The notes under the pieces: model-generated
What the model was told of the DNA's origin: nothing
Databases searched by the model: none
What the model saw: the letters and a program-made list of their open reading frames with translations, nothing else
Assembly (NCBI GenBank): GCA_947627875.1
Contig: CANQXS010000002.1
Location: forward strand, 62,001 to 126,000
Direction: 5' to 3'
Origin: an uncultured Clostridia bacterium
GTDB lineage: Bacteria; Bacillota; Clostridia; Oscillospirales; Ruminococcaceae
Length of the DNA stretch: 64,000 bases
Program-made: the position numbers and the translations under genes
Part shown: positions 3,565 through 45,016 of the stretch, piece after piece
How the letters are laid out: each line of letters opens with the position of its first letter
How positions within the stretch are numbered: position 1 is the first letter of the stretch

Positions 3565-3990
3565 CTTGATATATAAATTTATACTAAGTCGAAAAGTCGG
3601 CTCAGAATAAACCAAATTCCAAACAAAACCACGCTTTTATAAATACTTCAAAACCTTTTTCAGACAACAAGTCTACTAATATCTACTGATACCTTCAACC
3701 TCAGACAATTTGAAAAATCTGAATCCTATCTACTGATAGGAAATTTTTCAAAAACTCAGCAGCCCTCAAAAGAGTAAATCCATATTTACTCGGGCGTTTA
3801 GCCTAAGGATACGCGCTCAGGCTAATTTCGCGACCTCATTTCACATCTAACTCGGTTTAACTCTGAGGGTTTTCACTATCCGAAACCGCGGGCTTAATTC
3901 CCGCGCACTCAGCGACGGCTGAATTTATCAGCTAATTTTGAGTTTAAAGCCTTCAAAATGGGCTCAGATACAGTCGCGCCGTATACCACG
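3565..3990 (-). ncRNA. Candidate structured noncoding RNA, about 430-450 nt
   Basis: This stretch has no open frame of size, lies between two leftward terminators, and holds at least six hairpins visible by eye: 3935-3959 (7 bp), 3918-3932 (5 bp), 3887-3905 (6 bp, GC), 3798-3825 (7 bp), 3772-3791 (8 bp), and 3709-3752, where a 10-bp outer stem encloses a perfect 7-bp hairpin. The pentamer CTCAG/CTGAG recurs eight times between 3600 and 4020. Two copies of the 19-nt motif shared with the DGR template leader stand at its start. Large phage ncRNAs such as GOLLD and ROOL lie near tRNAs in phages; I cannot assign this one to either. A replication origin is the main alternative. Confidence 0.5.
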
Positions 3991-4001
3991 CGAGCGCGGC
4001 G
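3972..4001 (-). repeat. 30-bp direct repeat, copy 1, holding the 19-nt motif
   Basis: Identical over 30 bp to 4029-4058; start-to-start distance 57 bp. On the minus strand it contains CGTGGTATACGGCGCGACT (3972-3990), found also at 44937-44955 before the DGR template repeat. It is oriented toward the candidate ncRNA. Probable promoter or regulatory site (inference). Confidence 0.7.
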
Positions 4002-4028
4002 GGCTTGACTGCTACCTTCTGAGGGTGT

Positions 4029-4058
4029 AGTCGCGCCGTATACCACGCGAGCGCGGCG
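4029..4058 (-). repeat. 30-bp direct repeat, copy 2, holding the 19-nt motif
   Basis: Second identical 30-bp copy, with the 19-nt motif at 4029-4047 on the minus strand. It lies between the terminator of the sigma-like gene and copy 1, that is, where a promoter for the candidate ncRNA would be expected. Confidence 0.7.
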
Positions 4059-4065
4059 CGGCAAA

Positions 4066-4096
4066 TAAAAAAGCCCGCCGAAGGCGGGCGGGCTTT
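4066..4096 (-). terminator. Leftward terminator of the sigma-like gene
   Basis: On the minus strand a 9-bp GC-rich stem (4087-4095 with 4071-4079) with a 7-nt loop is followed by TTTTATTTG. It closes the transcription unit of the GC-rich gene at 4111-5571. Confidence 0.8.
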
Positions 4097-4110
4097 AATT
4101 TGTTAATTTG

Positions 4111-5571
4111 TTAATTTATCGCGATCGGCGCGGAAAATTGCCAAACGTGCAAAGGGGCGGCGGCAGTCGCGGCGTATTTTGTAGCGGGCGCGGGGGCAGC
4201 TTTAGCGGCTTTTTTCGCCCTCTTTGCCATTTCCGCTTTAGTCATCTTTAATTTATCATATTGATTATACAAATCTTGCTTGACGTGTAGCAAGTCGCGA
4301 AGGCGGGCGGCGGCGCGGCAGATCGGGAGGGAGGCGGCTATTATAGCGCGGGCGCGATCCTTGCAAGCCCCCGACAAATTGCCAAAGGATAAAACACGAT
4401 GGGCGCGGGCGATCTGCAAATCTGATACACCCGATGCGGCGCGGACGGCGGCGAGATCGGCGCGGGCGGCGGCTATATCCTCCGCGATTTTTTCGATGGC
4501 ATCTGATAACTTAGCGGCGGCGATCTGATAATTAACATCACTAATCATATAATATTTGCCGTATGTATAGCGGGCGGAATCAAGCGCGGCGCGGTAATTT
4601 TCACCTTCGCCGCCATCGTTAGTTGCGGCATCCTTGATATATTCCGCCCGCGCTTTTTCGGCGGCGGCGTTAGCATCTTTGCCGTGTTTTTGCGCGGTTA
4701 ATTTTGCGCCGATCGTTACAATGTCGAGCGCGTTTACATAGTCAAGCGCGGCGGGGCAATTTTCTTTTAGATACTTGATTAAATTAGCGCGGGCGAGTGT
4801 TAGTTGATTAGATACATTAACTTTTGATGTCTTTAAACGATCGGCGGCTTGCGATAGGCTACAACCTCCCGCGAGCGCGTGGATGATCTCGCGCTGACGG
4901 GGCGCGAGTGTCGCGGCGGCGGCAAAGATTGCGGCATCAAGATCCTCCCCTTCGGGGGCGGGATCGTCGGCGATCGCATCGGGGAGGGGCGCATCGTCAA
5001 TCAGGTTTAAGATCTCCGCCGTATACTTATCCGTCGGAATTAACTCCCCTTCGGCATCCATCGTGTAGTCTGTTGTCAATTCTTTAATGTGTTTACGCTT
5101 TTCGGCCGTTAGCCATCCATTAACCGACATATAACCGGAGGAGTAGATCGCGGAGTTATCGTCCGCGCCATCGTGGATCGCCTTCCATACACCTTCAAGC
5201 GCGAAGGCGTAAATGTCGTTTGCCTCTTGACTATATTCGCGGATCAACTTCATGATCAGCGGCGCGCCTTCGCCCTCCCCGCGATCCGTGCTAACAATGA
5301 CTTGTAACAATGATAACTCTTTGCCGCATCTTTGGATCGTCGGATCGCCGTCAACCGTTTTTGCGGCGCGGGCGGCGATATGCAAGGCGGCGCGGCAGAT
5401 CGCGAGATCGTCAACCTTCCCCGCCTGATTGATGGCGATCTGTACTCTGATTTGATCGCCTTCGGCGGCGGCGGCGCGGGCGGCGGCGTACGCTGAAAAG
5501 ATCGACGGAGCGTCAAGTGTTTTTGTCATGGTGTTGCCATTTTTGTTGGTGATGGTGATGATGTTCAACAT
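4111..5571 (-). CDS. Alanine-rich sigma-70-like protein, GC-rich gene
   Basis: Start at the ATG at 5571 (MLNIITITNKNGN), with GGAAGGA upstream; 486 aa. A segment at about residues 110-150 (SQEANDIYAFALEGVWKAI) resembles the start of sigma region 2. Residues of about 218-260 read as a sigma region 4 helix-turn-helix (LAPRQREIIHALAGGCSL...LKTSKVNVSNQLTLARANL). The C-terminal half is alanine-rich, helical and ends with a lysine/alanine tail. It would bind DNA and perhaps RNA polymerase. Base composition is unlike every neighbour: much more GC, many GCG/GCC codons and very frequent GATC. This suggests separate acquisition. A consensus-like promoter lies at 5671-5699. A sigma-like regulator is likely; its target promoters are unknown. 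Confidence 0.65.
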   Translation of the reverse strand: MLNIITITNKNGNTMTKTLDAPSIFSAYAAARAAAAEGDQIRVQIAINQAGKVDDLAICRAALHIAARAAKTVDGDPTIQRCGKELSLLQVIVSTDRGEGEGAPLIMKLIREYSQEANDIYAFALEGVWKAIHDGADDNSAIYSSGYMSVNGWLTAEKRKHIKELTTDYTMDAEGELIPTDKYTAEILNLIDDAPLPDAIADDPAPEGEDLDAAIFAAAATLAPRQREIIHALAGGCSLSQAADRLKTSKVNVSNQLTLARANLIKYLKENCPAALDYVNALDIVTIGAKLTAQKHGKDANAAAEKARAEYIKDAATNDGGEGENYRAALDSARYTYGKYYMISDVNYQIAAAKLSDAIEKIAEDIAAARADLAAVRAASGVSDLQIARAHRVLSFGNLSGACKDRARAIIAASLPICRAAARLRDLLHVKQDLYNQYDKLKMTKAEMAKRAKKAAKAAPAPATKYAATAAAPLHVWQFSAPIAIN

Positions 5572-5670
5572 AATTAGATCCTTCCCGATCCCCGAAGGGG
5601 GATCCGACGCGCTATTTTTTGCGGGCGCGTCAACCGTATATTTTAGCGGGCGGGGATGCCGCCCGTATAT

Positions 5671-5699
5671 AAAATACACCTTTGCGGCGGGGCAGTCAA
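5671..5699 (-). promoter_or_regulatory. Leftward promoter of the sigma-like gene
   Basis: On the minus strand TTGACT (5694-5699), a 17-nt spacer and TATTTT (5671-5676). It lies about 100 nt upstream of the ATG at 5571. Confidence 0.55.
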
Positions 5700-5746
5700 C
5701 CCAAAAACAGAAAATTTACAATTTGTTAATAAAAAGTTTACATTTG

Positions 5747-5757
5747 CGTGGTATACG
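5747..5757 (+). promoter_or_regulatory. Partial copy of the 19-nt phage motif
   Basis: CGTGGTATACG, the first 11 bases of the 19-nt motif found at 3972, 4029 and 44937. It is oriented rightward into the purine-rich tract. The 3' half differs, so it may be a weak or decayed site. Confidence 0.35.
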
Positions 5758-5770
5758 CTAAAAATTTGCC

Positions 5771-5938
5771 AAAAAAAGAAAAGAGGATCGGCAGAAGATC
5801 GGCGCGAAGGGGCAAAGAGGAAAAAGAGGAAAAAGCAAAGAGGAGGAGAGGAGGGAGGGAAGGGCAGATCGGCGGCGGGGATCGGGGCGGGCAGTCGAGC
5901 GCGGCGGGGATCGGGGCGGGAGGATCGGGGCGCGGGCG
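5771..5938 (+). other. Purine-rich, G-rich tract with GATCGGGG repeats
   Basis: A stretch of about 170 nt that is mostly A and G on the plus strand. The first half is A/G mixed (runs such as AGAGGAAAAAGAGG). The second half has closely spaced G runs (GGGAGGGAAGGG, then three GATCGGGG units) that could form G-quadruplexes on the plus strand. Open frames across it are low-complexity and lack ribosome binding sites. It lies between the divergent sigma-like gene and recombinase gene. Confidence 0.5.
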
Positions 5939-6196
5939 GCTATGTTACATTTTAGCACTTTGCAACATAGGGGGGTGTTTTCGATATTTTGAGGGGGCGT
6001 ATTTTTACATTTTTATATAAGTCGCTTCATCTCTCCCCCTCGATCCAGAATTTTTCCTTCGACAACCGTATCGTCAAATCATTTTTCTTAACTGTTGACA
6101 AATAACTGCGAATAAACCTTATGTTATAAAGGTTTAGGTAAAATCATTGCCAGCACAGAATACGAAAATTTTCTTAAAAAATTTTCAAATTAGGTA
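5939..6196. other. Intergenic region before the recombinase
   Basis: Contains GC-poor sequence, a possible weak promoter (TTGACA at 6094-6099 with a TATGTT 19 nt away) and the inverted A/T-rich stretch near 6170-6190. No gene seen. Confidence 0.4.
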
Positions 6197-6225
6197 TTGA
6201 CAAAGTAACGATTATATGTTATAAT
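6197..6225 (+). promoter_or_regulatory. Consensus sigma-A promoter of the recombinase
   Basis: Perfect TTGACA (6197-6202), 17-nt spacer, perfect TATAAT (6220-6225). The start codon at 6269 follows about 43 nt later. This is the best housekeeping promoter in the phage part and implies expression by host RNA polymerase in the lysogen or early in infection. Confidence 0.9.
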
Positions 6226-6268
6226 CTATGTGTAAACTAAATTATACGAGATGAAAGGAGCCACCCAA

Positions 6269-7084
6269 ATGGCGAACATAATTCAGATAGATTCTCTTAG
6301 ACCTGGAACTTCCGAAAAGAAGTTCATAGACTTCTCCTCTCTTACTAAATCGAAGAGACAGTTACCAGAAGGACTGATAGCACCGGCTATCGAAGAAACT
6401 CCCAAAGAGCTTGCAGTTGAACATGCGGCAGAACCTATCAAAAGTCTTGAGGACATAAACAGAATATCTACCTACCTTCTGGCAAAAGAGAGATACAGAG
6501 ATTATATGCTCTTTATAGTAGGTATTAACTTCGGACTGAGGGTAAGCGATTTGCTCCAACTCAGATTCTCAGATTTGATTAACCCAGACCTATCTTTTAA
6601 AACTACATTCCCCATTCTGGAAAAGAAAACTAAAACAACCAGAAAGGTTCAGAAGAACAGATATATATCTATCAACGACGCGGTTATGGAGGCAGTTACC
6701 CTGTATCTCCAACACAACCAGTGCAATCTGAACGATTATCTGTTCAGAAGTGAAAGTAACAGAACTGCGGGAGACGACAAACCTATGAGCAGGGTTTCAG
6801 TAGACAGAATACTCAAAGAGATAGGAGCGGATCTCCACTTAAACATTCGTATCTCCACTCACTCTCTCAGAAAGACATTCGGGTACCACCAAATGCTCAT
6901 GTCGAATAACGATCCACGAAAGCTCTTATTACTACAGAAAATATTCGGTCACTCCTCTTCCACCCAGACATTAGACTATATAGGGATTACAGAGGAAGAA
7001 GTAGAGGACGCATATCTCAAGCTGAATCTGGGTAGCAGAAAGCACTACCTCATAGACAGCTCAATCGGAGAAGCTGCGATCTGA
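6269..7084 (+). CDS. Tyrosine recombinase (first of three)
   Basis: 271 aa from the ATG at 6269 (MANIIQID), which has AAAGGAG 8 nt upstream; an ATG at 6251 overlaps that site. The catalytic set is complete: R in GLRVSDLLQL (about residue 91), K in the beta-hairpin region (KNRYISI), HSLRKTF, FGHSS, and Y in LDYIG near residue 244. The N-terminal core-binding domain is very short, about 70 residues, which is less than in classical integrases. It stands alone behind a consensus promoter beside the GC-rich sigma-like gene and far from the tRNA-Thr att site, so it is probably not the main integrase. Inversion, resolution or mobility of the 4-7 kb segment are possible roles. Confidence 0.85.
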   Translation: MANIIQIDSLRPGTSEKKFIDFSSLTKSKRQLPEGLIAPAIEETPKELAVEHAAEPIKSLEDINRISTYLLAKERYRDYMLFIVGINFGLRVSDLLQLRFSDLINPDLSFKTTFPILEKKTKTTRKVQKNRYISINDAVMEAVTLYLQHNQCNLNDYLFRSESNRTAGDDKPMSRVSVDRILKEIGADLHLNIRISTHSLRKTFGYHQMLMSNNDPRKLLLLQKIFGHSSSTQTLDYIGITEEEVEDAYLKLNLGSRKHYLIDSSIGEAAI

Positions 7085-7437
7085 AGCAGAGTTTACAATA
7101 GGTGTTTACCAAGCAAGTAGCTTGTTAACATAGATATGGTAGCTTGAAAATTGAATATAGAAACTCTCTGGTGATTAGATGGTTAGGTAGACAATGAAAA
7201 GGACATTAGCTTTCGGAGATGCTAATGTCGAAGACAATGTTTCTTTCCAGTGGGGATCAAGTAGCTTCCTAAGAAAGATGATTCCTAAAATTTTTTCTTA
7301 TCTTTATTATTAGGGAACGATTTTCGCAAAGTGCCTATTATCGCGCTTTTACAAGCCTAAAATTTCAATTTTAGGAGGCTGGGGTTCCTAAATTTATTTC
7401 TCAGATATTTCTCACGAAAGGTTCAAGACAGCAATTT
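7085..7437. other. Intergenic region with two perfect hairpins
   Basis: No gene seen. One 9-bp perfect hairpin lies at 7202-7229 (GACATTAGC / GCTAATGTC). Another 9-bp hairpin at 7356-7375 (CCTAAAATT / AATTTTAGG) has a 2-nt loop, within a larger AGCCT...AGGCT frame. They may terminate recombinase transcription or be recombination or replication sites. The helicase gene follows with a GAAAGG binding site. Confidence 0.55.
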
Positions 7438-8754
7438 ATGATCAAGGTTTGCGATGCAATCATGGGTTCTGGCAAATCTTCTGCTGCCATAACGTATATA
7501 AACGAGCATAAGGATTTGAAATTCATTTATATAACGCCGTACTTGAACGAAGCAGAACGGATTGTCAACGCCTGTTCCGAACTGGAGTTTGTGCAACCAA
7601 GCAACAAGTATGCTGAGTTCGGACATCAAAAATATCAGCACACGCTATCACTAATTAACGAAGGCAAGAATATTGCCACCACACACGCCATGTTTCTGAG
7701 ATATTCGGAAACAATGATTGAGGCTATTAAGAAGAATGGTTATACGCTCATAATAGATGAGTCGGTCAACGTCATTCAGGACATGGACGTTCCTGAAGTT
7801 TTCATTTCGCTTTTAAAGGACGCTGGGTGGATTACCCAGACGGACACTGATATATATAATCTCTCACTTCCCTCTTCGATTACGTCGAACAGGGAGGGAT
7901 TCGGAAAAGGACATTGCGGTTTCGACATAATAGACAGAATCTCCCATCTTGCAGAAAGCAAACGAATCGTCGGAATACAGGACGGCGACGGAAAGGTATT
8001 CTACTGTATATACTCTAAGAAGATACTGGACGCGTTTAAAGACGTGTTTATACTCACCTATTTATTTGAAGCCTCGTCAATGAAATACTACTTTGACATT
8101 GAAAACATATCCTATCAGACGATAGGAATATCTAAGACTGACGGCATATACCGTTTCAGCGATACTGAAATGTATATCCCGCCTTACACCGAATCATTAT
8201 CTTCAATGATTCACATTTTCGACAACGACAAACTTAACGACATCGGAAAGCCTAAGACGGCACTGTCCTTCTCGTGGCTTTCAAACAAATCTTCTGAATA
8301 TAAAGCTAAGCAGAATCAGCTCAGACGGAACACCTCAAATTATTTTAAGAACTACTTTAAGGGCGTTGCGTCTGAAGATAAGCTCTGGTCAACATATAAA
8401 AGCGGCCGCGAAAAGGTCGTGTCAAACGGCTATGCCAGCCGTTTCCTATCCTATAACTGTAGAGCAACAAACGAATATAGAAACTGCTATGTACTCGCCT
8501 ACTGCGTGAATATATTTATGCGACCTTGCGAAAAGAATTTTTATCTGTCTCGCGGGGTGGACGTTCACGAAGATGAAGCCGCGCTATCGACTATGATACA
8601 GTGGATATGGCGATCGGCTATTCGCGACGGCAAAGAAATCTGGATATACATTCCAAGCAAAAGGATGCGGGAATTATTGACAGATTGGATTAGCAGCGTG
8701 GAACAACGATACAAAGACTACAAGGAGAATCAACATAATGATAAAAATGAATAA
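7438..8754 (+). CDS. Phage SF2-type helicase/ATPase
   Basis: 438 aa. The Walker A loop is at residues 8-15 (MGSGKSS), a motif Ia-like stretch follows (FIYITPYLNEAER), Walker B is at about residues 104-109 (TLIIDES, DExx type). Near the C-terminus SRGVDV and QWIWRSAIRDGKE look like SF2 motifs V and VI. Such proteins unwind DNA or load replication machinery in phages. The gene begins the rightward early operon and overlaps the following sigma gene by 17 nt. No DNA polymerase or primase is present in the window, so replication probably relies on the host or on genes further left. Origin-binding helicase is one possibility. Confidence 0.7.
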   Translation: MIKVCDAIMGSGKSSAAITYINEHKDLKFIYITPYLNEAERIVNACSELEFVQPSNKYAEFGHQKYQHTLSLINEGKNIATTHAMFLRYSETMIEAIKKNGYTLIIDESVNVIQDMDVPEVFISLLKDAGWITQTDTDIYNLSLPSSITSNREGFGKGHCGFDIIDRISHLAESKRIVGIQDGDGKVFYCIYSKKILDAFKDVFILTYLFEASSMKYYFDIENISYQTIGISKTDGIYRFSDTEMYIPPYTESLSSMIHIFDNDKLNDIGKPKTALSFSWLSNKSSEYKAKQNQLRRNTSNYFKNYFKGVASEDKLWSTYKSGREKVVSNGYASRFLSYNCRATNEYRNCYVLAYCVNIFMRPCEKNFYLSRGVDVHEDEAALSTMIQWIWRSAIRDGKEIWIYIPSKRMRELLTDWISSVEQRYKDYKENQHNDKNE

Positions 8755-9280
8755 TACCCAGAGAAAGCTTGTGGAGGATAACCACAAGCTTATTTATTCG
8801 TTTCTTCAGCGCCACAACTTACCATTAGACGCTGAGGAAGATTGGTATGGCACTGCGGCACTTGGGCTGTGCAGGGCGGCTGTACTTTATAACCCCGACA
8901 AGGGGGCGTTCAGCACTTATGCCTACCAAGCTATGCTGATGTCAGTGCGAGAGGTCGTGAGAAGCAAGAATAAGGACATTCAAGCCACATATTACCTTGA
9001 CTCCCCCATTCCCTTCACTGATATGTTCTTGCTTGATATAATCCCCGATAACGACGACGTAACTAAATATGTAGACACATTGTCGATTGTTCAGAAAACG
9101 TATGACAAAATGTCTGCCAGAAACAAGGAAGTGATAGCCTTAGCCATAGGCAAAGGTATGAAATATAATGCCATCGGCGCAAGACTCGGGATAACCCGAC
9201 AGGGCGTCTCGCGTATTGTTAATAGGTTCAGAAAGAGAGTTGCTGCTGCATTGTCTGCTGGCAACTCTTTTAATTTATAA
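8738..9280 (+). CDS. Sigma-70-family factor
   Basis: 180 aa; start ATG at 8738, 9 nt after AAGGAG inside the end of the helicase gene. Residues of about 10-80 match sigma region 2 (NHKLIYSFLQRHNL, GLCRAAVLYNPDKGAFSTYAYQ, where FSTYA is the typical core). Residues of about 125-170 match region 4 with a helix-turn-helix (KYNAIGARLGITRQGVSRI). It is short, with regions 2 and 4 only, as in ECF or phage sigma factors. It sits directly before the RNAP-like gene, which suggests that the two act together or that it redirects host RNA polymerase to late genes. Confidence 0.85.
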   Translation: MIKMNNTQRKLVEDNHKLIYSFLQRHNLPLDAEEDWYGTAALGLCRAAVLYNPDKGAFSTYAYQAMLMSVREVVRSKNKDIQATYYLDSPIPFTDMFLLDIIPDNDDVTKYVDTLSIVQKTYDKMSARNKEVIALAIGKGMKYNAIGARLGITRQGVSRIVNRFRKRVAAALSAGNSFNL

Positions 9281-9309
9281 GCCGAAACCGTTTAACAATA
9301 TGAAAGGAT

Positions 9310-12081
9310 GTGGTATGTATTTCTAAACAGCTAACAGCTCAGAAGTACATTCTGAAGCTTCACAGTACAAGATTAAAAAGAGCCAGATGGAATTTGACTC
9401 TTCCTTTATCAGAAGCGAGAAGTAATGACGAAGTTATTTCAATCGGAGACAGCCAGCAGCTTAGATGGATTGACGAAATAAATGATATCAAAGACGCTGA
9501 TATTACTGCAAAAAACATCAAAAAACAAATCAAATCGTTAAAGAAATTACCAAATTCTATAGCAAACAGAAAGGAAATCAGGACATTATATAAATGCTTG
9601 GACAGTGTTCAATATAAGCCCGACTATGTTTGCATAATCATGGATACCGTTGGCGACTACCATAGAGCTTGCAAAGGGTTCGCTATCAACGGCGTGAAGT
9701 ATACAAGGCTGCTGGGAACGAACGGCGGCGTTAAGAATTCGACCATAGTGTTTGTCAGCGAGCGGGTCGCCCCGATACTGAGGGAACGGATCAATAACGG
9801 CAGAAACGAAAGTATTGAGCTTGTACCCGCTAAGTTTGAAGCATATCGCGCTTTGACGTGCAGTGGGTCTACGCCCGTATCAATGCCAAAGGGAATATTG
9901 GTAGTTAAAGATTGTGAGACTACATTCACAGAAGACGTTATCACGCTGAGTGACGAGAAAGGCAATGAGCCTGCTATGAAGTACCAGAAAGACGTTCAGA
10001 TTACGCTCAACGAATCTGACGGGTATGGTTTGATACTGCCCTCTTTGGCACGGCGGTGGTCGGACGAATTAGGACTTGACTATCTGGCAAGCGGATTCAA
10101 TACACGCTTTTCCTGGGAAAAGGGAATGGTGTTCTGTTTCGACTTTATTGAGTTTGCCGACCAAGTTGCACACAAGCATATAGTTAAAGACGCGTGGGGC
10201 AACGAGGTGGATATCGCTCAGGTTGAACTTGTTCTCACAACTTCAATGCTTAAGCTATGGAGCAGCTATGACAGCATAGAACATTACCTAAGTATGTGTG
10301 AGAAGAATCACTACTCTTTTGGCGTAACTAAGGTATGCCCTAAGGCCCTTGAGAATCAGCGCGACTTAAACTACCAGTTTATTCAAAGCTATAAACTCTC
10401 AGACGAGGATATTGACAGGCTGATTAAACCTACAGTCAGCACGATTCACGACATTCTTTCCGACGATTACAGAAAGGCCATACTGTTTTTGGCCGGTACT
10501 CATATCGACGGCAAGAACGCCATGCGGACAGAGAACGACTTTGCGAGAGCAATTATGGCTGATAAGCGAGTATTTGATGACCCGTTTGTAAAACGCAAGA
10601 TATTTGAACTTATACGCAAGAAGATTGACGACGCTAAGATTGGGGTGATACAGGTACACGGCAACTACTCTATCGTATCTGGCGATCCTTATTCCTTATG
10701 CCAAAGTATATTTGAACTCCCTGTCACTGGCTTACTTAAAAAGGGCGAGCTGTTTAACCGATATTGGGTGGATTCGGGTGCCGACAAGGTTGCGTGCTTC
10801 AGGGCTCCTATGACGTGTCATAACAATATACGCTTAATGACGATAGCGAGGCGCGAAGAGCTGTTGCATTGGTATCGGTATATGAATACCTGTTCTATCT
10901 TCAACTCGTGGGATACGTCGGCACACGCTCTTAACGGCATGGATAAAGACGGAGACTTGGTATTGCTGACAGACAACGAGGTGCTGATTAGAAATCACGT
11001 TCAGCTGCCTACGATAATGTGCGAACAGAGAAATGCCGCGAAAACTTTGGTGGACGAAGAAAAGCTGATTCGCGCAAACATTGACAGTTTCGGAGACGAT
11101 ATTGGCAAAATAACAAATCGCGTCACTACTATGTATGACGTTCAGGCACAGTTTGAACCTGACAACGAAGAATATCAGACGCTTGACTATCGGATTAAGT
11201 GCGGACAGTTGTTCCAGCAGAATTCGATTGATAAGGCAAAGGGTATAGTCGCTAAGCCAATGCCGAAGGAATGGTATAATAGAGGTTCGTGCAGAATCAA
11301 ACCTGAAGATGAAGAATTTTTGTCGGACGATGAGCTTGACCGCAGACGGTTTAATCAAGTGGTGCTTGCGGACAAGAAGCCGTACTTTATGCGCTATATC
11401 TATCCCGACCTAATGGAGCAATACAGGACTTACCTTAAGAACACGGATAAAAAGTGTATCCGTAAATACAGAAAAACAATAGACGAATTGCTAAACACCG
11501 AGAATCTTTCCGAAGATGAATCGGTGTTTATTTCTTATTATTTCAGAAGAATGCCAGTGGGCGTTCACCAGTGCGTGATGAATAAGATATGCAAGAGGTT
11601 TGAAGAAGAGTTTGACGGGTTTATACTCAAGACTGGTTCGGACAGCGAATATGACTACTCGTATCTTAAGAGCGGTCAGGAGTATACGGAATCGCAGTAC
11701 TATGCGGTATACTCACTTTACAAACAGTATTTACAGCGGCTGGCAGATTTTTCTCAGGCTGCAAAAAGACAGCGGTTAGACAAAGACGAATGTGTGTGTA
11801 AGAAGAAGATTTTAATTGATGAGTTTCAGGAGAAGTGCGACAGGATTTGCTCAAACTCGGCACTGCTGACTGATATCATCTTAGATATATGTTATAAGAA
11901 AAACGGAACGAAACAGTTTGCGTGGGATCTGTGTGCTAATCAAATCATAGATAATTTACTCAAGGCAAATGAGGGCAGATACTGCTACCCTACTGAGTGT
12001 GAGGACGGCGACATAGGATTCTGCGGTAAGAGGTTTAGAATCGAAACGGGGTGTGTATATGAAGGAAATAGTAACGAATGA
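9310..12081 (+). CDS. Single-chain RNA polymerase-like protein (DxDGD, YonO/QDE-1 type)
   Basis: About 923 aa. The key motif is GMDKDGDLVLL (D545, D547, D549), the DxDGD metal-binding signature of double-psi beta-barrel RNA polymerases. Forty-seven residues before it, FRAPMTCHN (R498) resembles the conserved RAPTLHR of the RNAP beta-prime subunit, which has the same order and similar spacing. Family knowledge: YonO of phage SPbeta and crAss-like phage RNAPs are one-chain enzymes of this superfamily. It would transcribe phage genes. The start is unclear: GTG at 9310 almost touches the ribosome binding site AAAGGA, while the well-spaced ATG at 9315 is one frame off and closes after three codons. 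The next gene begins inside its 3' end. Confidence 0.75.
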   Translation: MVCISKQLTAQKYILKLHSTRLKRARWNLTLPLSEARSNDEVISIGDSQQLRWIDEINDIKDADITAKNIKKQIKSLKKLPNSIANRKEIRTLYKCLDSVQYKPDYVCIIMDTVGDYHRACKGFAINGVKYTRLLGTNGGVKNSTIVFVSERVAPILRERINNGRNESIELVPAKFEAYRALTCSGSTPVSMPKGILVVKDCETTFTEDVITLSDEKGNEPAMKYQKDVQITLNESDGYGLILPSLARRWSDELGLDYLASGFNTRFSWEKGMVFCFDFIEFADQVAHKHIVKDAWGNEVDIAQVELVLTTSMLKLWSSYDSIEHYLSMCEKNHYSFGVTKVCPKALENQRDLNYQFIQSYKLSDEDIDRLIKPTVSTIHDILSDDYRKAILFLAGTHIDGKNAMRTENDFARAIMADKRVFDDPFVKRKIFELIRKKIDDAKIGVIQVHGNYSIVSGDPYSLCQSIFELPVTGLLKKGELFNRYWVDSGADKVACFRAPMTCHNNIRLMTIARREELLHWYRYMNTCSIFNSWDTSAHALNGMDKDGDLVLLTDNEVLIRNHVQLPTIMCEQRNAAKTLVDEEKLIRANIDSFGDDIGKITNRVTTMYDVQAQFEPDNEEYQTLDYRIKCGQLFQQNSIDKAKGIVAKPMPKEWYNRGSCRIKPEDEEFLSDDELDRRRFNQVVLADKKPYFMRYIYPDLMEQYRTYLKNTDKKCIRKYRKTIDELLNTENLSEDESVFISYYFRRMPVGVHQCVMNKICKRFEEEFDGFILKTGSDSEYDYSYLKSGQEYTESQYYAVYSLYKQYLQRLADFSQAAKRQRLDKDECVCKKKILIDEFQEKCDRICSNSALLTDIILDICYKKNGTKQFAWDLCANQIIDNLLKANEGRYCYPTECEDGDIGFCGKRFRIETGCVYEGNSNE

Positions 12082-36428: not shown

Positions 36429-36444
36429 AGAGGTGAACTTATAA

Positions 36445-37257: not shown

Positions 37258-37272
37258 AGGAGCGTGACGGAT

Positions 37273-40200: not shown

Positions 40201-42003
40201 CACTGGCAAAACGAAGGCGAAAGTTCTGCCGAAGCCGATAAGAGACATATCGGAGATATTTGGTATGATTCTGACGCGGCTGACGGTAACGGTATGTCCT
40301 ATATGTGGGATGGCTCTAACTGGAAAGAAACTCGCACGAAACCGCCTGAGGGATTGGTTGACAAATGGGATGGCAAAAAAGTCGTATTCTATTACGTTCC
40401 GCCTGAACACCCCACACCCCCGTATGACTTAAACGACTTGTGGGTGCAGGGTGAAAGCGGTGAAATCAAACGTTGTCAAAATGCAAAGGCGGCTGGTGAA
40501 TCCTATGCGGAAACCGACTGGGGTAAGGCTGACGGATACGCAGACGACGCTGCAATCAGAAACTTTATTAACGACGAATTAACGGCAATTCAGACACAGG
40601 TTGACTCCAAAATCGAAACTTGGTATCAATCCACCGACCCTCGAACCGATCCCGCCTCTCACTGGCAAAACGAAGGCGAAAGTTCTGCCGAAGCCGATAA
40701 GAGACATATCGGAGATATTTGGTATGATACGAGCGACGGTTCTTGTGAGCGTTGGGATGGTGGGCATTGGACAGAGGTAACAACCAAGCCACCTCAAGCA
40801 GTATTCGATAGGATAGACGGGAAGGCACAAATCTTTGTCGGAGAAAATGCGCCAGCTACGCCTTATCACGAAGGAGATTTGTGGTTTAAGTCAGAATCGG
40901 ATCCGATTTATGTATCTACTAACGACCGCCTAAGCGGTGCGTGTGTACTTTCTGATTGGGTTAAGAAAGACCAATATATAGACAGCAGTGATGTTGGAGA
41001 TATAATTGATAACACTTTAACTCAGGAAGATGTTTTTAATCGGCTGACAGGCGGCGGCAAAAATGAGGGTATTTACCTTGAAAACGGGCATTTATATGTC
41101 AATGCGTCGTACATCAAGAGCGGAACGCTTAGCGCAGACTTTATCAGCGGCGGTCATATAAGTGCCGACCTCATACAGGGCGGTCACATTAGTGCTGATT
41201 TGATACAAGGCGGTCATATAAGTGCCGATCTCATACAGGGTGGTCATGTAAGCGCAGACATTATTCAGGGCGGTACGCTGATATTGGGTGGCTCGGGAAA
41301 TATGTTCGGCTCGTTACTTGTTAAAGATCCGTGGGGAAATACCATTGGAGAATGGAACATGGGCGGAATTTCTATCACCCGAGGTTCACTTGATTCAAGT
41401 CTTATCACTGGTAACGTACTTGCAACGGCTTATTGGCAAATTGGATTTTTGGGCTTACAGTATGACTATTCTGGCAATTACGGTGAGAGCGGGTGGAGCA
41501 ATGTTCTTACACAAAACTATGCATTCCCATACGAGAACGTAATTGATGCTTACTTGGGAAGAGTACATTGTCTGCAAAGAGTTTTAACAGTGGGTGGTTA
41601 TTATACTTCGTCTTATACGGCTGGGTGGTTTTTACAATCTCAATCTGCTCTTTATGCCGACCTTGGAGTTTTGGGTGCCTCTTCATCGAGATATAAGGAT
41701 ATAGACAGAGAACTCGTTAGAGACGAATTAAATGATTTATATGATATCCCTGTTGTGTGGGCTAAGTACAAAGACGGCTATTTAGCCGAAGCCGATGAAA
41801 GATGTGGCAAAGAAATGCCAATGTTCATAGCCGAAGATATTGAAAAGGTATTCCCTCTTGCAGTTGACCATTTGAGTGACGGGCAACCAGAAAACTGGAA
41901 TTATAGGATAATGATACCACTTATGTTCCAAATGATTAAAGACCAAAAGAGCCAGCTTGATGAACTGAAGTCAGAGTTGGCGGAATTGAAGAAAGGAAAT
42001 TGA
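37273..42003 (+). CDS. Tail-tip/fibre protein with S74-type C-terminal chaperone
   Basis: About 1,577 aa, from the ATG at 37273 (AAGGAG 10 nt upstream). The N-terminal 400 residues resemble the Tal/gp27-like hub and carry a zinc-ribbon insertion at about residue 218 (CPNCGYRG...CPEC). A helical middle follows. From about residue 950 there are two copies of a tryptophan-rich domain (WYQSTDPRTDPASHW), then five copies of the decapeptide HISADLIQGG (one as HVSADIIQGG), then a beta-rich head. The last 110 residues (SSRYKDIDRELVRDELNDLY...) are a peptidase S74 intramolecular chaperone ending in a coiled coil. This is a trimeric fibre that attaches to the host surface. Confidence 0.8.
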   Translation: MAIKIKFDNEQRALPPTLVLATRSGHKLGCIPAQHIVFHGSLANGYELSCSVSKYDNWEKIDLWDTLEDFKLAWSPEWDVWFELDVTTNEADDTVKNITATSIGEAELSQVMLYNIEINTETDIAREDYKPTIIYNPNDYTASLLDRIMEKTPHYKIRHVDSSIAKLQRTFTFDGKSLRDALLEICEEVNALLIIHSGTDANGKIERAYSIYDLEEHCPNCGYRGEQVNGHCPECGRAEWSFGYGDDTGIFVSRENLADDITYETAKDSVKNCFRLVAGDDLMTAAVAAANPNGTPYLWYISDKVREDMSPALRNRLKEYDDLYKATQDSSFSFTSTAIRNYNALAAKYGKNQIGTVEKFAGVLDAYYDTIDFELYLEHGLLPDVDPPLTSAADELRKLIANLSPVSVRSLSTLSSTTASSYVTQAARSIIDPRYSVTTQNETLNGNLWSGSFIITRYSGEEDTATSAVISVSLDENYENYIRRQIERVLNTTEFEDLDIVELFKKSGTAFASAIKQYSLAMLESFYDACQACLNVLVEHNSANESIWAEIYHDLYEPYYAKLGYLQAEISLRESEIGTIQMAQAEIESVITSTQKKLDFEKFMGEELWLEFATYRREDTYQNDNYISDGLDNAALVENARDFLKTAQEDIERSATLQHSISANLSNLLVMEEFQGMTDNFELGNWLRIRVDDTVYILRLIDYEIDFDNLETLTVEYSDVVISPSSVNDIKSVLNSANSMASSYGSVSRQAKHGDNSQRQLDNWVTEGLEATKVRFLSDAQNQNITWDENGMLFRKWDDITESYEPTQLRIINSTIAVTDDNWKTVKTAVGGFDYKDPVTGEVKHGYGINAELLVGKLILGEELGLYNANNSLTFDRNGLTITNGDNSFMVSPDGTNLFVVECGEGNKVMWVDENGGLHLRPTSFELSSGQTIQDITDDALEKFKETIFDPAYEDLVDSKIETWYQSTDPRTDPASHWQNEGESSAEADKRHIGDIWYDSDAADGNGMSYMWDGSNWKETRTKPPEGLVDKWDGKKVVFYYVPPEHPTPPYDLNDLWVQGESGEIKRCQNAKAAGESYAETDWGKADGYADDAAIRNFINDELTAIQTQVDSKIETWYQSTDPRTDPASHWQNEGESSAEADKRHIGDIWYDTSDGSCERWDGGHWTEVTTKPPQAVFDRIDGKAQIFVGENAPATPYHEGDLWFKSESDPIYVSTNDRLSGACVLSDWVKKDQYIDSSDVGDIIDNTLTQEDVFNRLTGGGKNEGIYLENGHLYVNASYIKSGTLSADFISGGHISADLIQGGHISADLIQGGHISADLIQGGHVSADIIQGGTLILGGSGNMFGSLLVKDPWGNTIGEWNMGGISITRGSLDSSLITGNVLATAYWQIGFLGLQYDYSGNYGESGWSNVLTQNYAFPYENVIDAYLGRVHCLQRVLTVGGYYTSSYTAGWFLQSQSALYADLGVLGASSSRYKDIDRELVRDELNDLYDIPVVWAKYKDGYLAEADERCGKEMPMFIAEDIEKVFPLAVDHLSDGQPENWNYRIMIPLMFQMIKDQKSQLDELKSELAELKKGN
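40140..40269 (+). repeat. 130-bp perfect direct repeat, copy 1
   Basis: Identical at every base to 40599-40728 inside the tail-fibre gene and in the same reading frame. It encodes the tryptophan-rich DSKIETWYQSTDP unit. Such identity between coding repeats points to a recent duplication or gene conversion. Confidence 0.9.
40599..40728 (+). repeat. 130-bp perfect direct repeat, copy 2
   Basis: Second identical copy, 459 bp after the first. Recombination between the copies would delete exactly 153 codons in frame. Confidence 0.9.
41150..41280 (+). repeat. 30-bp tandem repeats encoding GGHISADLIQ
   Basis: Five successive units of about 30 bp (GGCGGTCATATAAGTGCCGA-like) with silent differences between units. 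This beta-repeat is common in phage fibre shafts. Confidence 0.8.
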
Positions 42004-42004
42004 A

Positions 42005-42253
42005 ATGAATCAGAATAAACCTATATCTCTTATCAGAGATGAACTTATGAAGGAAGTTGTTGCGGCCATCAACAAATCGAACCTGTCTTATTTCCTGCTG
42101 GAGTATATCTTTAAGGATATACTTACCGAGATACATAACGGGGCAATTAAACAGGCTCAATCAGAACAGGCAGATTATCTTAAGGCTCTTAAAGCTGAGG
42201 AGGATAAGGCCAAGAACCCTCAGGAAGATAGAGCTGAGAACCCCGAAGCATAA
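42005..42253 (+). CDS. Small phage protein, 82 aa
   Basis: Begins MNQNKPISLIRDELMKEV after GAAAGGA. It is helical and acidic to the end (KALKAEEDKAKNPQEDRAENPEA). It starts 1 nt after the fibre gene stop. Small proteins in this place may be tail-fibre assembly factors. No family recognised. Confidence 0.65.
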   Translation: MNQNKPISLIRDELMKEVVAAINKSNLSYFLLEYIFKDILTEIHNGAIKQAQSEQADYLKALKAEEDKAKNPQEDRAENPEA

Positions 42254-42280
42254 CGCTTTAAGCAATAATTAAATACAGTT

Positions 42281-42310
42281 CAAATGCGGGGCTCACTACC
42301 CCGCATTTTG
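42281..42310 (+). terminator. Terminator after the tail-fibre unit
   Basis: CAAATGCGGGG (42281-42291) and CCCCGCATTTTG (42299-42310) form a stem of 10-11 bp with a 7-nt loop, followed by AATAAAATC. Bidirectional terminator is possible. Confidence 0.65.
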
Positions 42311-42344
42311 AATAAAATCGACATTTTAAAAGGAGGTATGGCTA

Positions 42345-43193
42345 TTGAAGGATATTCTTGTGTATAACGCTGCGGGCGATAGGCTGGTCAGAGTAGCGCA
42401 ATGGGATAGAGATATTACCGTTACGATTGAAGATCCAGATATTGCTACGGCTTATCCCGTTCACTTCTTTAACAAAAACAGCGACCAAGCATATGTAGTT
42501 ATGTCTACGTTCGAGGGCGGTAAGTTAAAAGCGAAGATTCCCGACAGGCTTCTGAGAGAGCCTTATACGGTTTGCGGCTATGTTCAGAGAAATGACGGCG
42601 ACGAAGAGCGGCGAAGCGATTTCAGATTTGTAATCGGTGTTATTCCTAAGCCTCAACCTACGGACTATATTCTGCGTACCGACCCTGACTATATTGAGGT
42701 CGAGTCGCTTAAAGAGGAATATAAGGCACTCCAGAAAGAGGCCGACCAAGCGCTTAAAGAGGCTAAGGAGGCAAACACCACTGCAACAAGTTTGCTGAAT
42801 GAAACAAGGCAAGCGATAAAAGATGCGAACACCGCAAAAGACAATGCAAACACGGCGGCGAACGCTGCCAATACGGCAAAGACGCAAGCTGACGCGGCAA
42901 GAGACAGAGCTAACGAAGCCGCCGAGGGCGCGGAGACTGCCAAGACCGAAACCGAAAAAGCTACGGCGGGGGCGAACAACGCTGCGAACAGGGCGACATC
43001 GGCTACGGATTCGGCGAACAAGGCAGCGGCTGACGCTGGACAAGTTGCAGACGAAGCAAAGACTCTGGTAGACGAGGCAGTTCAGGCGCTTAAGGACGCT
43101 CAGGCCGTTATCAGCGAGGCAAAAGACATAGCGTTCTTTATTGATGAAAATGACTTTGGACTTAATGCAAGGATTTTAAAGGAGGGCTTTTAA
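42345..43193 (+). CDS. Baseplate/receptor protein with helical stalk (BppU-like)
   Basis: 282 aa, TTG start at 42345, 8 nt after AAGGAGG; an ATG at 42338 touches that site and is out of frame. Residues 1-110 form a beta domain (AAGDRLVRVAQWDRDITVTI...YTVCGYVQRND) like the N-terminal domain of upper baseplate proteins. Residues of about 125-265 are a long alanine-rich coiled coil (KEANTTATSLLNETRQAIKD and on). It ends 1 nt before the DGR target gene and probably forms the stalk or adaptor that carries the variable protein. Confidence 0.7.
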   Translation: MKDILVYNAAGDRLVRVAQWDRDITVTIEDPDIATAYPVHFFNKNSDQAYVVMSTFEGGKLKAKIPDRLLREPYTVCGYVQRNDGDEERRSDFRFVIGVIPKPQPTDYILRTDPDYIEVESLKEEYKALQKEADQALKEAKEANTTATSLLNETRQAIKDANTAKDNANTAANAANTAKTQADAARDRANEAAEGAETAKTETEKATAGANNAANRATSATDSANKAAADAGQVADEAKTLVDEAVQALKDAQAVISEAKDIAFFIDENDFGLNARILKEGF

Positions 43194-44867
43194 ATGGCAC
43201 AACAGGTAAACTTTCCCCGCGATACGACACTTCACGAAATCGCGGATGTATTGAGAAATAAGTATCAGGAATTTGACGGCACTGCCGCCACTTACAATAA
43301 GATTATGAGGGCGTGGTTCGTCGCACAGGGCGTGAATGTTATGACCCCCGCAGGGCTTACCGAACTGTGCGACAGGTGGTATTCGATTACCCGCGTTCCG
43401 TGGCACGGCTGGGTATCGTTCTCTAAATCTACTGCCGTTTCTACAGGCACAAAGGGCGGCGACAATGAGCATATGACTTGCGCAGCTTCTACAGACACCG
43501 TTGCGGGTAAGGACGACTACGCGGGCAATCCCCTCTTCGCTTGCGTGGACTGCAACTTTGTGGTTGACCCCGAAACCTTAGAGCCGCAGATTACAGCTAT
43601 CTCGGGTATCACCGATAACTTCCAGAGATACAGCCCCAACCACTTTGTGGGCGTTTTACAGATGTCGGCATACTACGCCGTGGTCGATTACGACGATAGG
43701 TATGAGGAGCATTACTCCTCGACCGAAAACGTTCCCGTCAAGGGTATTGCGCCGCTTGACGAGGCGGTAAGACCCAACAGCAATAACGTTCGTCCGTGGG
43801 TAGTTCACTCGAAGTATTTCAACCACACCGTAAACAATAAGATGACTTCGTATGCGGGCGTTATTCCCACGGCTTACAGTATTTCTCATAACACGCTTCA
43901 TACTTTGGCGGCTGCTACGGGAACAGGCTACAGCGGCGGCACTACTGCTGACGACGCTTTCCTCAAGATTATGCTCCATATTAAATATGCCTCGCTCACC
44001 GGCGACGGAATTATTCAGGGCTGCTGTAACTGCAATAAGCAGTCTGTCGCTAAGGTTTCTGAGACTAATGTTAAGCGCGTTATTCTCAGCGAGGCCGACG
44101 GCGCATACTTCGAGCCCGGTATGGGTGTTCTGATCGGCACCAACGCAAGTACTGATAGACAGGCAGCTACTACCTATAACGTTACTGGTCAAGCTGGTGC
44201 TGTTGTTACGAGCGTTGAAAAGGTCAGCATTTCCGATACGAATTACATTGCCGTTTATGTCAATACCGACGCAGTGTTTGATACCACGGCTGATACTACG
44301 TTAATATCTACATTCCATTGGGCTAACGGTACTACCGACTGCGTTCTCGGAAACGACGGATCGCCGAAAGACAATACGAGCGGTAAGTATCCTGGCAAGA
44401 TTCAGGGTATTGAATTCATGCAGGGAGCATATGAAGCGTTTGCGGACGTTATTCTTAAGCTCTATAAAGAAGACGACGGTACATACTGGTATGAACCCTA
44501 TGTATGCCGTCAGACTGCTAAGTTTGCTACTTCGATCACTACCGACTATCAGGCAAGCGGCATTAAACTGCCTCAGCCCGCGTCAAGTAACTGGTATTAC
44601 ATCAAACGTATGGGCTACAAGAAAGGCGTTTACTTCCCGATTGATGTCACCGATGCTTCAAGCTCGACATACGTCAGAGACGCTTTCTACCTGTTAGCAG
44701 CCACCGAGGGTATCCGAGAGTGGCTTGCCCGTTGCGACCTGTTCGACGGGGTTGCTCGCGCGGGCGGTGCGGGTGCGGGCTACGGCGACCGCGATGTCGG
44801 GGACGCGTACTGGTACATCGTCGGTCGGCTTTCGCCTAACGGCAACAGGGGTGAATGGGCGGCGTAA
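43194..44867 (+). CDS. DGR target: variable receptor-binding protein
   Basis: 557 aa. The N-terminus (MAQQVNFPRDTTLHEIADVL) resembles phage tail attachment modules. The last 50 residues are encoded by the variable repeat: EWLARCDLFDG...YGDRDVGDAYWYIVGR, then a fixed tail LSPNGNRGEWAA. The ten residues encoded by template AAC codons are the exposed diversified sites, as in C-type-lectin-like DGR targets such as Mtd. By context it is a tail-tip receptor-binding protein whose ligand specificity is changed by the retroelement. The gene is GC-richer than neighbours at its 3' end. The fold of the central part is not recognised from sequence. Confidence 0.85.
   Translation: MAQQVNFPRDTTLHEIADVLRNKYQEFDGTAATYNKIMRAWFVAQGVNVMTPAGLTELCDRWYSITRVPWHGWVSFSKSTAVSTGTKGGDNEHMTCAASTDTVAGKDDYAGNPLFACVDCNFVVDPETLEPQITAISGITDNFQRYSPNHFVGVLQMSAYYAVVDYDDRYEEHYSSTENVPVKGIAPLDEAVRPNSNNVRPWVVHSKYFNHTVNNKMTSYAGVIPTAYSISHNTLHTLAAATGTGYSGGTTADDAFLKIMLHIKYASLTGDGIIQGCCNCNKQSVAKVSETNVKRVILSEADGAYFEPGMGVLIGTNASTDRQAATTYNVTGQAGAVVTSVEKVSISDTNYIAVYVNTDAVFDTTADTTLISTFHWANGTTDCVLGNDGSPKDNTSGKYPGKIQGIEFMQGAYEAFADVILKLYKEDDGTYWYEPYVCRQTAKFATSITTDYQASGIKLPQPASSNWYYIKRMGYKKGVYFPIDVTDASSSTYVRDAFYLLAATEGIREWLARCDLFDGVARAGGAGAGYGDRDVGDAYWYIVGRLSPNGNRGEWAA
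44720..44828 (+). repeat. DGR variable repeat (VR), 109 bp
   Basis: Aligned without gaps to the template repeat at 45017-45125. It differs at 14 positions: 13 are adenines in the template, falling in all ten template AAC codons (now GAC, TTC, GAC, CGC, TAC, GAC, CGC, GAC, TAC, TAC), and one is a T-to-G change. The final 12 bp ATCGTCGGTCGG are identical and would contain the initiation site of mutagenic homing. Confidence 0.95.
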
Positions 44868-44874
44868 GCTGCCC

Positions 44875-44892
44875 AGAGGGGTCTTCCCCTCT
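44875..44892 (+). other. DGR hairpin downstream of the variable repeat
   Basis: AGAGGGG (44875-44881), loop TCTT, CCCCTCT (44886-44892): a perfect 7-bp GC-rich stem with a 4-nt loop, 46 nt past VR and just after the target stop codon. Hairpin/cruciform structures of this kind and place are needed for target recognition in studied DGRs. Confidence 0.8.
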
Positions 44893-45016
44893 AACGACAG
44901 AAGCACAGAAAAACAATTTTATTTAAACAACAATGCCGTGGTATACGGCGCGACTATAACAGTAGGCGCATGACACAACCGTGCGCCTACAAAGGGGTCG
45001 TATAATGCGCTTGCCT
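44893..45016 (+). promoter_or_regulatory. Leader region of the template RNA
   Basis: Noncoding. It holds the 19-nt phage motif (44937-44955), a perfect 9-bp hairpin GTAGGCGCA/TGCGCCTAC at 44962-44990, and a TATAAT at 45001-45006 without a good -35 element. The template RNA most likely begins here. Confidence 0.6.
44937..44955 (+). promoter_or_regulatory. 19-nt phage motif before the DGR template
   Basis: CGTGGTATACGGCGCGACT, identical to the sites at 3972-3990 and 4029-4047 (minus strand). It is oriented toward the template repeat, which starts 61 nt later. A promoter role is inferred from its orientation and repeated noncoding location. Confidence 0.6.

What the first reader, a model, noticed from the sequence alone, without database searches (positions are those of the whole stretch)
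3972..44955. A 19-nt motif links the ncRNA candidate with the DGR template leader
CGTGGTATACGGCGCGACT occurs exactly at 3972-3990 and 4029-4047 (minus) and at 44937-44955 (plus). All three are noncoding and 40 kb apart, and each points toward a noncoding RNA (candidate ncRNA or template repeat). An 11-nt partial copy lies at 5747-5757. A match of this length cannot be chance. A phage-specific promoter read by the phage's own RNAP-like enzyme or a sigma-like factor is the most attractive explanation: one switch for both noncoding RNAs.
Basis: partly seen in the sequence, partly recalled or inferred. Interest (0 to 1): 0.85.

Follow-up and report, generated by a model that had tools for sequence, protein, structure and literature searches.

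The report
Sites of a fast-evolving phage regulator
A 19-letter DNA word repeated in a large prophage is most likely the docking site of the phage's own sigma-like regulator, whose gene sits beside a tandem array of it; sister phages keep the same layout with different words, and this phage also carries one in front of its mutation-making retroelement template.

Summary
In detail: three exact 19-nt copies, none expected by chance, none elsewhere in the genome. The element is really 19-23 nt (GTGGTATACGGCGCGACTATATC). The prophage spans 110 kb in a tRNA-Thr gene. Close copies occur in 2 of 31 genomes of the genus, both carrying this phage. The two "ncRNA" copies are a 57-bp tandem duplication between a sigma-like gene (4111-5571, minus) and a RAGATH-16 RNA. 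Sister phages give the key: five other sequence-distinct phages with the same RNA polymerase have a tandem array, each with its own 46-76-bp unit, just downstream of a divergent HTH or sigma-like gene in the same place; in 4 of 6 phages (this one included) a partial unit lies 143-212 nt upstream of that gene. One of two RAGATH-16 relatives also has its own array upstream of the RNA. So the motif most likely is the cognate site of the neighbouring sigma-like protein, autoregulatory and facing the ncRNA, and secondarily present at the DGR template leader. Promoter function is plausible but unproven; a replication or partition array is the main rival. The phage RNA polymerase is real (QDE-1/YonO-type fold), but the relatives examined lack the motif.

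The parts
3972..3990 (-). motif copy 1 (array unit nearest the ncRNA); 23-nt form 3967-3989
4029..4047 (-). motif copy 2 (array unit nearest the sigma-like gene)
3972..4058 (-). tandem array, 57-bp period, two copies in this assembly; contig C4 of the relative G315 starts inside it
44937..44955 (+). motif copy 3 in the interval between the VR-side hairpin and the DGR template repeat
5746..5758 (+). solo half-copy GCGTGGTATACGC, 175 nt upstream of the sigma-like ATG; position comparable to the solo copies of sister phages
4111..5571 (-). sigma-like HTH protein, 486 aa (ORF extends to a GTG at 5679); proposed binder of the motif
   Evidence: TIGR02937 E 7e-8, 32.2 bits, below the curated cutoff 42.9; homolog in L020, 29% over 330 aa
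4070..4096 (-). intrinsic-terminator-like hairpin between the sigma-like gene and the array
3861..3932 (-). RAGATH-16 RNA (RF03047), core of a longer structured ncRNA
   Evidence: 72.4 bits, gathering 65.6; region 3560-3995 folds with z -3.9
2678..3532 (-). 284-aa protein gene downstream of the RNA; homologs lie beside RAGATH-16 in L105 (after it) and L106 (before it)
6251..7084 (+). tyrosine integrase (int1), divergent from the sigma-like gene
8738..9280 (+). second sigma factor, directly upstream of the polymerase gene
   Evidence: TIGR02937 E 3e-18, above cutoff
9310..12081 (+). single-chain two-barrel RNA polymerase, QDE-1/YonO type
   Evidence: invariant D545, D547, D549; fold search
43194..44867 (+). 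DGR target protein ending in the variable repeat; hairpin after it at 44875-44892
   Evidence: read from the sequence; hairpin; no Pfam family
44935..44949 (+). hairpin GCCGUGGUAUACGGC formed by the motif in the DGR leader RNA
   Evidence: five of six pairs with probability 0.98-1.0, the innermost 0.68
45015..45135 (+). template repeat (approximate limits, by eye), enclosed by helix 44997-45008 / 45147-45158
45358..46599 (+). DGR reverse transcriptase
   Evidence: RVT_1 E 1e-6, just below Pfam's cutoff; relatives

Best explanation
The motif is the cognate DNA site of the fast-evolving sigma-like HTH protein encoded at 4111-5571. The protein's gene is flanked by its sites: a solo site upstream (autoregulation) and a tandem array downstream, pointing into the RAGATH-16 ncRNA and the leftward gene arm. 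In this phage lineage one full site also stands in front of the DGR template repeat, so the same protein could act on template RNA. Most likely action: a promoter-type site. The sigma-like protein brings RNA polymerase to the site, the phage-specific GC-rich part giving specificity and the ACTAYA end acting as the melting box, and transcription runs into ncRNA or template RNA. Shown: site identity, array-gene-solo layout, recurrence of the layout with different sequences, and faster divergence of the regulator than of its neighbours. Inferred: binding, and activation rather than repression.
For: Array just downstream of a minus-sense HTH or sigma-like gene in 6 of 6 sequence-distinct phages whose held DNA covers the recognised place: this one (=G315), L020=L030 (46 bp), L022 (51 bp), L025 (76 bp), L026 (61 bp), L035=L038 (49 bp); int1 follows in 5 of 6 (not detected in L026). 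Solo partial copy upstream in 4 of 6, 143-212 nt from the ATG; longest array match in the divergent region against 400 shuffles: L020 21 nt (0), L022 26 nt (0), L026 12 nt (2), G000 13 nt (0), L025 8 nt (252), L035 6 nt (400). L105 has a 62-bp array x2 just upstream of its RAGATH-16 RNA and a homolog of the 284-aa gene after it. G000 versus L020 identity: sigma-like 29%, second sigma 41%, int2 60%, int1 66%, polymerase 67%, as expected if binder and sites co-diverge. The sigma-like gene is in 2 of 396 family genomes (8 of the genus among them) and close motif copies are in the same 2 of 31 genus genomes. ACTAYA lies on the RNA-ward strand of 4 of 7 arrays (1 of 5000 shuffles).
Against: No binding or transcript data. 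Regulator homology to G000 is significant only for L020 (blastp E 8e-23) and L026 (phmmer E 2e-8); L022 and L025 match each other (E 8e-17) and L038 only weakly over the HTH (E 7e-4 with L022), so these three rest on position and HTH or sigma profiles. Profile matches are mostly below curated cutoffs, and the AlphaFold model of this protein is poor (pLDDT 46). ACTAYA was chosen after seeing the arrays, and four exact 6-mers (e.g. ACACCG) are also shared by 4 of 7. In G000 the solo copy is only the 5' half (12 nt) and faces away from the gene; the 13-nt longest match there is another array part, CGAGCGCGGCGGG at 5896. L025 and L035 have neither solo copy nor box. L106, the other RAGATH-16 relative, has no array. 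Between G000 and G315 the DGR copy changed as fast as its flanks (1 of 19 in the motif, 6 of about 150 in the leader, that one included). The G315 contig 43 copy has, by eye, only a terminator downstream. In L020's contig no further exact 18-mer exists. Four more distant polymerase relatives with 10 kb upstream held show at most short repeats (L029 29 bp x2.3, L031 25 bp x2.3, L036 and L039 none), though that program also missed the two-copy arrays of G000 and L022.
Confidence: 0.58

Rival explanations
1. The array is a replication-origin or partition (iteron/centromere-like) locus bound by the neighbouring HTH protein; the DGR and contig-43 copies are secondary sites or relics.
For: Gene for a DNA-binding protein, tandem array and an upstream solo copy are also the plan of iteron and partition loci (general knowledge). 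The array lies where the two gene arms diverge, and the cumulative GC skew of the 110-kb prophage has its minimum in the 1-kb bin starting at window 2681.
Against: GC skew is confounded here because most genes run away from this point. The protein resembles sigma-70 regions 2 and 4, not a Rep or ParB (no such family hit). A copy oriented toward the DGR template is not explained.
Confidence: 0.17
2. The motif is a promoter read by the phage's own QDE-1/YonO-type RNA polymerase, with or without a sigma factor.
For: Polymerase fold supported. YonO of SPbeta transcribes its late genes as one operon from a start upstream of yonK and a noncoding RNA, promoter sequence not yet determined (PMC5467207, passages), so few promoter copies would not be odd.
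Against: Polymerase relatives at 44-67% identity lack the motif in the parts held. No further copy stands before any protein operon of the prophage. The weak likeness to the T7 promoter (117 of 20,000 shuffles as good) has no T7-type polymerase found to go with it (its control found nothing anywhere, so absence is not proven).
Confidence: 0.12
3. A short dispersed repeat copied by recombination into noncoding DNA, without regulatory role outside the array.
For: The DGR copy and the contig-43 copy are absent from the relatives of those loci that I looked at and the DGR copy drifts like its flanks.
Against: Copies keep the same length and the orientation toward an RNA in the two phage contexts; an array recurs at the same position in sister phages.
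Confidence: 0.15
4. An RNA element: in the DGR leader the motif forms a 6-bp hairpin that helps to stop reverse transcription or shape the template RNA.
For: Hairpin pairs mostly at probability 0.98-1.0; the leader folds with z -5.4 and -5.0 in the two phages. The G355, contig-10 and L016 DGRs have different predicted hairpins in that interval. In BPP-1 a motif upstream of TR ends cDNA synthesis (PMC12875486, passages).
Against: The ncRNA copies fold differently; structure alone does not need 19 identical letters. Pairing of the motif with the TR head is no better than chance (556 of 3000 shuffles) and a 12-bp TR-enclosing helix competes.
Confidence: 0.08

Closest known systems
SPbeta repeated element (SPBRE) and its repressor MrpR
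   Same: A short phage-specific element in noncoding regions of a large temperate phage, recognised by a phage-encoded regulator (PMC10516654, passages).
   Different: SPBRE lies in about ten promoter regions and is bound by a recombinase-fold repressor; here there are two loci, one a tandem array, beside a sigma-like gene. The two tyrosine recombinases here look catalytically intact by eye.
Phage-encoded sigma factors and their promoters
   Same: Sigma-70 family resemblance (TIGR02937 match below cutoff) with a phage-specific site.
   Different: The site is one contiguous 19-23-nt block rather than two boxes with a free spacer; sites form a tandem array beside the gene and differ in each of the phages compared.
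YonO late-gene polymerase of SPbeta
   Same: Same polymerase fold class (inferred through QDE-1); a noncoding RNA near the start of a long operon (PMC5467207, passages).
   Different: No evidence that the polymerase reads this motif; the late genes of the right arm have no copy in front.
Bordetella BPP-1 DGR
   Same: VR, hairpin after VR, TR and RT in order (PMC3240598, passages).
   Different: A motif shared with another noncoding RNA of the phage stands before TR; of the DGRs examined only the sister prophage in G315 has it too.
RAGATH-16 RNA
   Same: Rfam match above gathering score; two viral relatives found.
   Different: I know of no function and found no paper naming it. Here it follows a site array; L105 has its own array there, L106 does not.

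Membership tests
sigma-70 family regulator and cognate promoter | protein carries regions 2 and 4 | tested here: inconclusive
   TIGR02937 spans profile 19-165 of 165 at E 7e-8 but below cutoff; among relatives TIGR02937 hit in L025, L026 and L038, only HTH or LuxR-type families in L020 and L022
sigma-70 family regulator and cognate promoter | site is a promoter (RNA 5' end just downstream) | not testable with these tools
   no transcript data; no host sigma-70 consensus at the sites
autoregulated regulator with cognate repeats | repeats flank the regulator gene in relatives too | tested here: met
   array in 6 of 6 distinct phages with the place recognised; solo copy in 4 of 6, with shuffle control
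autoregulated regulator with cognate repeats | regulator and repeats co-vary | tested here: inconclusive
   all six repeat units differ and the regulator is the fastest-diverging gene compared between G000 and L020; homology of the L022, L025 and L038 genes to G000 not significant; no binding test
SPBRE-like dispersed operator system | many copies in promoter regions across the prophage | tested here: not met
   three copies plus one half copy in 110 kb
YonO/QDE-1-type RNA polymerase | two-barrel fold and DxDGD catalytic loop | tested here: met
   Foldseek: 21 hits at E<=0.001, all QDE-1 or RDR2, TM-scores 0.32-0.47; invariant D545, D547, D549 in 12 sequences
DGR | RT, TR and VR with the VR-side hairpin | tested here: met
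RAGATH-16 | covariance-model score above gathering threshold | tested here: met
   72.4 versus 65.6 bits
iteron or partition locus | site acts in replication or segregation | not testable with these tools
   GC-skew minimum nearby, confounded by gene strand
T7-type phage promoter | T7-type RNA polymerase encoded | tested here: inconclusive
   PF00940 not found in G000 or G315, but the control search found none either

The most novel reading that the evidence does not exclude
Phages of this RNA-polymerase family carry a specificity module: a hypervariable sigma-like factor and a private tandem array of its promoters, replaced together from phage to phage. The array fires a RAGATH-16 noncoding RNA and the leftward arm, and in this lineage the same private promoter was placed before a DGR template, so that protein diversification is switched on by the phage's own sigma factor.
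Probability: 0.27. Interest if true: 0.82.

Novelty: new variant of a known kind. Interest (0 to 1): 0.6.

Why it matters
If true, it gives a concrete handle on when a phage turns on template RNA for a diversity-generating retroelement, and on what drives a RAGATH RNA of unknown function. It would also give a natural series of sigma-like proteins paired with their own sites, from which recognition rules could be read. An unresolved array would also explain why contigs of these phages repeatedly end at this place.

Tried and rejected
Mini-CRISPR array: repeats of 30 and a spacer of 27 nt were considered, but the repeat occurs nowhere else in the host genome. Sigma-70 promoter at the motif: not found. 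T7-type promoter: weak likeness, no polymerase found. Coding reading (VVYGAT or WYTARL frames): the two viral 18-mer hits (L107, L108) appear to be coding in the VYGAT frame, but frames and flanks of the phage copies share nothing else. Motif pairing with the TR head, in cis or in trans: no better than shuffles. Foreign GC-rich cassette: dropped once a syntenic homolog of the sigma-like gene was found. Host-type repeat in the DGR interval: a 25-nt piece of the second DGR's interval is single-copy in G000. Prophage junction at the motif: the left arm was not found in the G315 bin except as weak homologs, but the contig start is better explained by an unresolved tandem array. Contig 43 of G315: the two recombinase relatives read (L124, L125) lack the motif.

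Hits set aside: in 396 family genomes 10 had a match with up to 2 mismatches; of the 8 besides G000 and G315 only G148 was read in sequence and the G100 context was printed; the reversed pattern matched in 13 genomes, so these 8 are at background level. Four of 7 genome-contig hits, the 3-mismatch hits in G405 and G406 and those were not examined. The L129 hit looks like chance coding sequence. Of the 25 RT and polymerase relatives, 16 were scanned with Rfam. Of the 21 polymerase loci many end before the place of the array, and L025's array lies at the edge of the held stretch, not at the contig end. Array 11-mers also matched at 4745 and 5896 in G000, 1401 in L020 and 428 in L026.
Full report
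What is there. The 19-nt motif is exact at three places and absent elsewhere in the genome with up to 3 mismatches. The window is part of a 110-kb prophage of lower G+C (0.40-0.50 in 4-kb bins, against 0.52-0.55 on the right-hand host side), bounded by a tRNA-Thr attachment pair at G000:C2 4681-4725 and 114790-114834 (45 bp, 40 identical), i.e. window -57319 to 52834. Genes left of about 5.6 kb run mainly leftward, genes right of 6.2 kb rightward. The divergent region holds, from left to right: 284-aa gene (-), RAGATH-16 RNA (-), two motif copies (-), a terminator, sigma-like gene (-), a half motif, then integrase (+), helicase-like protein, second sigma factor and RNA polymerase. The third motif lies between the hairpin after the DGR variable repeat and the template repeat.

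Distribution. Of 31 genomes of the genus, G000 and G315 carry close copies (up to 1 mismatch over 21 nt); G405 and G406 have a 3-mismatch match. G315 is the MAG Lapin-012 bin74, an uncultured Clostridia bacterium (contig lengths and title). Its contig 4 holds the right arm of the same prophage, mostly over 90% identical in translated comparison with some diverged tail genes, starts inside the array, and has the DGR copy with one change. G315 contig 43, which carries another mobile segment, has a 21-nt exact copy after a serine recombinase gene. The exact 19-mer is in no viral contig scanned.

First tests against the regulatory idea. DGRs related by RT (G355 72%, G000 contig 10 62%, L015/L018 and L016 about 47%) keep the TR/VR arrangement but not the motif. 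The two viral RAGATH-16 relatives lack this sequence. Between G000 and G315 the DGR copy varies like its flanks. At that stage the motif looked lineage-specific.

What changed the picture. A tblastn of the sigma-like protein against the viral loci found a homolog in L020/L030 in the same place, divergent from int1 (full-length 29% over 330 aa, E 8e-23 in a six-sequence comparison). L020 begins inside a tandem array of 46-bp units right downstream of that gene and has a solo copy of about 21 nt upstream of it. The same plan holds for L022, L025, L026 and L035/L038, each with a different unit and a gene with an HTH or sigma-4-like match, or (L025) a weak sigma match. These regulators fall into two significantly linked groups, G000-L020-L026 and L022-L025, with L038 linked only weakly. 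Solo copies occur in G000, L020, L022 and L026 at 175, 212, 143 and 182 nt from the ATG, not in L025 or L035. The matches in L020 and L022 (21 and 26 nt) and L026 (12 nt, same orientation as the array and ending in ACTATA) exceed shuffles (0, 0 and 2 of 400); for G000 the 12-nt half copy is exceeded by a 13-nt match of another array part at 5896, so its value rests on position and on its conservation in G315. L105, a RAGATH-16 contig, begins with two 62-bp units just before the RNA and has a homolog of the 284-aa gene after it, tying an array to the RNA from the other side; L106, the other relative, shows none. Contigs L020, L030, L038, L105 (base 1), L022, L035, L026 (last base) and G315 contig 4 end in the array, as expected of unresolved tandem repeats; true copy numbers are therefore unknown, in G000 too.

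Mechanism. A gene for a DNA-binding protein flanked by an array and a solo copy of one sequence, with the sequence different in each relative, is best read as a regulator with its cognate sites. The regulator diverges faster than its neighbours (29% against 41-67% between G000 and L020). On the strand pointing away from the gene, the units of L020, L022, L026 and G000 contain ACTAYA after a GC-rich phage-specific part. This looks like a melting box with a specificity part, but the box was picked after the fact, other 6-mers are shared as widely, and L025, L035 and L105 lack it. I therefore hold cognate site at about 0.58 and promoter proper at about 0.4. Shown: site identity, layout, divergence. 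Inferred: binding, activation, control of ncRNA and template RNA.

The polymerase. The 923-aa protein aligned with 11 relatives has invariant D545, D547 and D549. Its AlphaFold model (pLDDT 74) matches QDE-1 and RDR2 polymerases (21 hits at E<=0.001, TM-scores 0.32-0.47; further listed hits are chance level). A sequence search of the PDB found nothing. It may transcribe from these sites together with a sigma-like protein, but the polymerase itself does not track the motif.

Rivals. A replication or partition array fits the layout and the GC-skew minimum near 2.7-3.7 kb, which gene direction confounds. RNA-level roles fit the DGR leader fold but not the ncRNA copies. Random copying is possible for the DGR and contig-43 copies.

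Literature. Passages of PMC5467207, PMC10516654, PMC8270828, PMC12875486, PMC3240598 and PMC11534266 were seen through term look-ups, none as a whole text; PMC11061315 (RAGATH-18-derived RNAs as guides of IS607 TnpB) was seen only as a search listing. Searches for RAGATH-16, SPBRE, YonO promoters, DGR template promoters and phage sigma factors with tandem repeats listed no paper whose title or start of abstract describes such a sigma-gene array; several lists were cut to the best 6-20 of up to 212 papers.

Noticed in passing
window 44997-45008 / 45147-45158; L077, L078: The DGR template repeat is enclosed by an 11-12-bp RNA helix (GUCGUAUAAUGC:GCAUUAUACGGC) that is kept with changes on both sides in the G355 and G000-contig-10 DGRs; L015 also has a long pairing between TR head and tail. 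No formal covariation count was made.
   Followed up: partly
G000:C10:70992-72200 (L078): A second, related DGR (RT 62% identical) in the same host genome, without the motif.
   Followed up: partly
window 3560-3935; L105, L106: Conservation of the RAGATH-16 RNA extends past the 72-nt Rfam model (GTTAAACCGAGTTAGATGTGAAA..AGGTCGC) and it sits beside a 284-aa protein family in contigs of 115 and 121 kb as in this 110-kb prophage. RAGATH-16 was found in 1 of 396 family genomes.
   Followed up: partly
L035, L038, L034 (polymerase gene): The RNA polymerase gene match is split at residues 545-547, i.e. at the catalytic DxDGD loop, by about 0.3-1 kb, as by an intron or intein.
   Followed up: no
G000:C2:46978-53911 (L089, L044): The left arm encodes proteins that by eye look like NAD synthase, nicotinamide phosphoribosyltransferase and nicotinamidase (labels recalled, no family search).
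   Followed up: no
window 47453-47508 and -2887 to -2832: An about 50-56-bp inverted pair, by eye part of two paralogous small coding sequences in the two arms.
   Followed up: no
L042 12236-12400: Several degenerate repeats (GGCACACGGCGCGACTATACCATGAGGGTCACAC and variants), one sharing 14 nt with the motif, near the contig end.
   Followed up: partly
window 40140-40269 and 40599-40728: A perfect 130-bp direct repeat inside the 1579-aa tail-region ORF.
   Followed up: no
window 6197-6225: A 12-of-12 sigma-70-type promoter match with TG before the -10 in front of the integrase-polymerase operon, in contrast to the motif sites.
   Followed up: no
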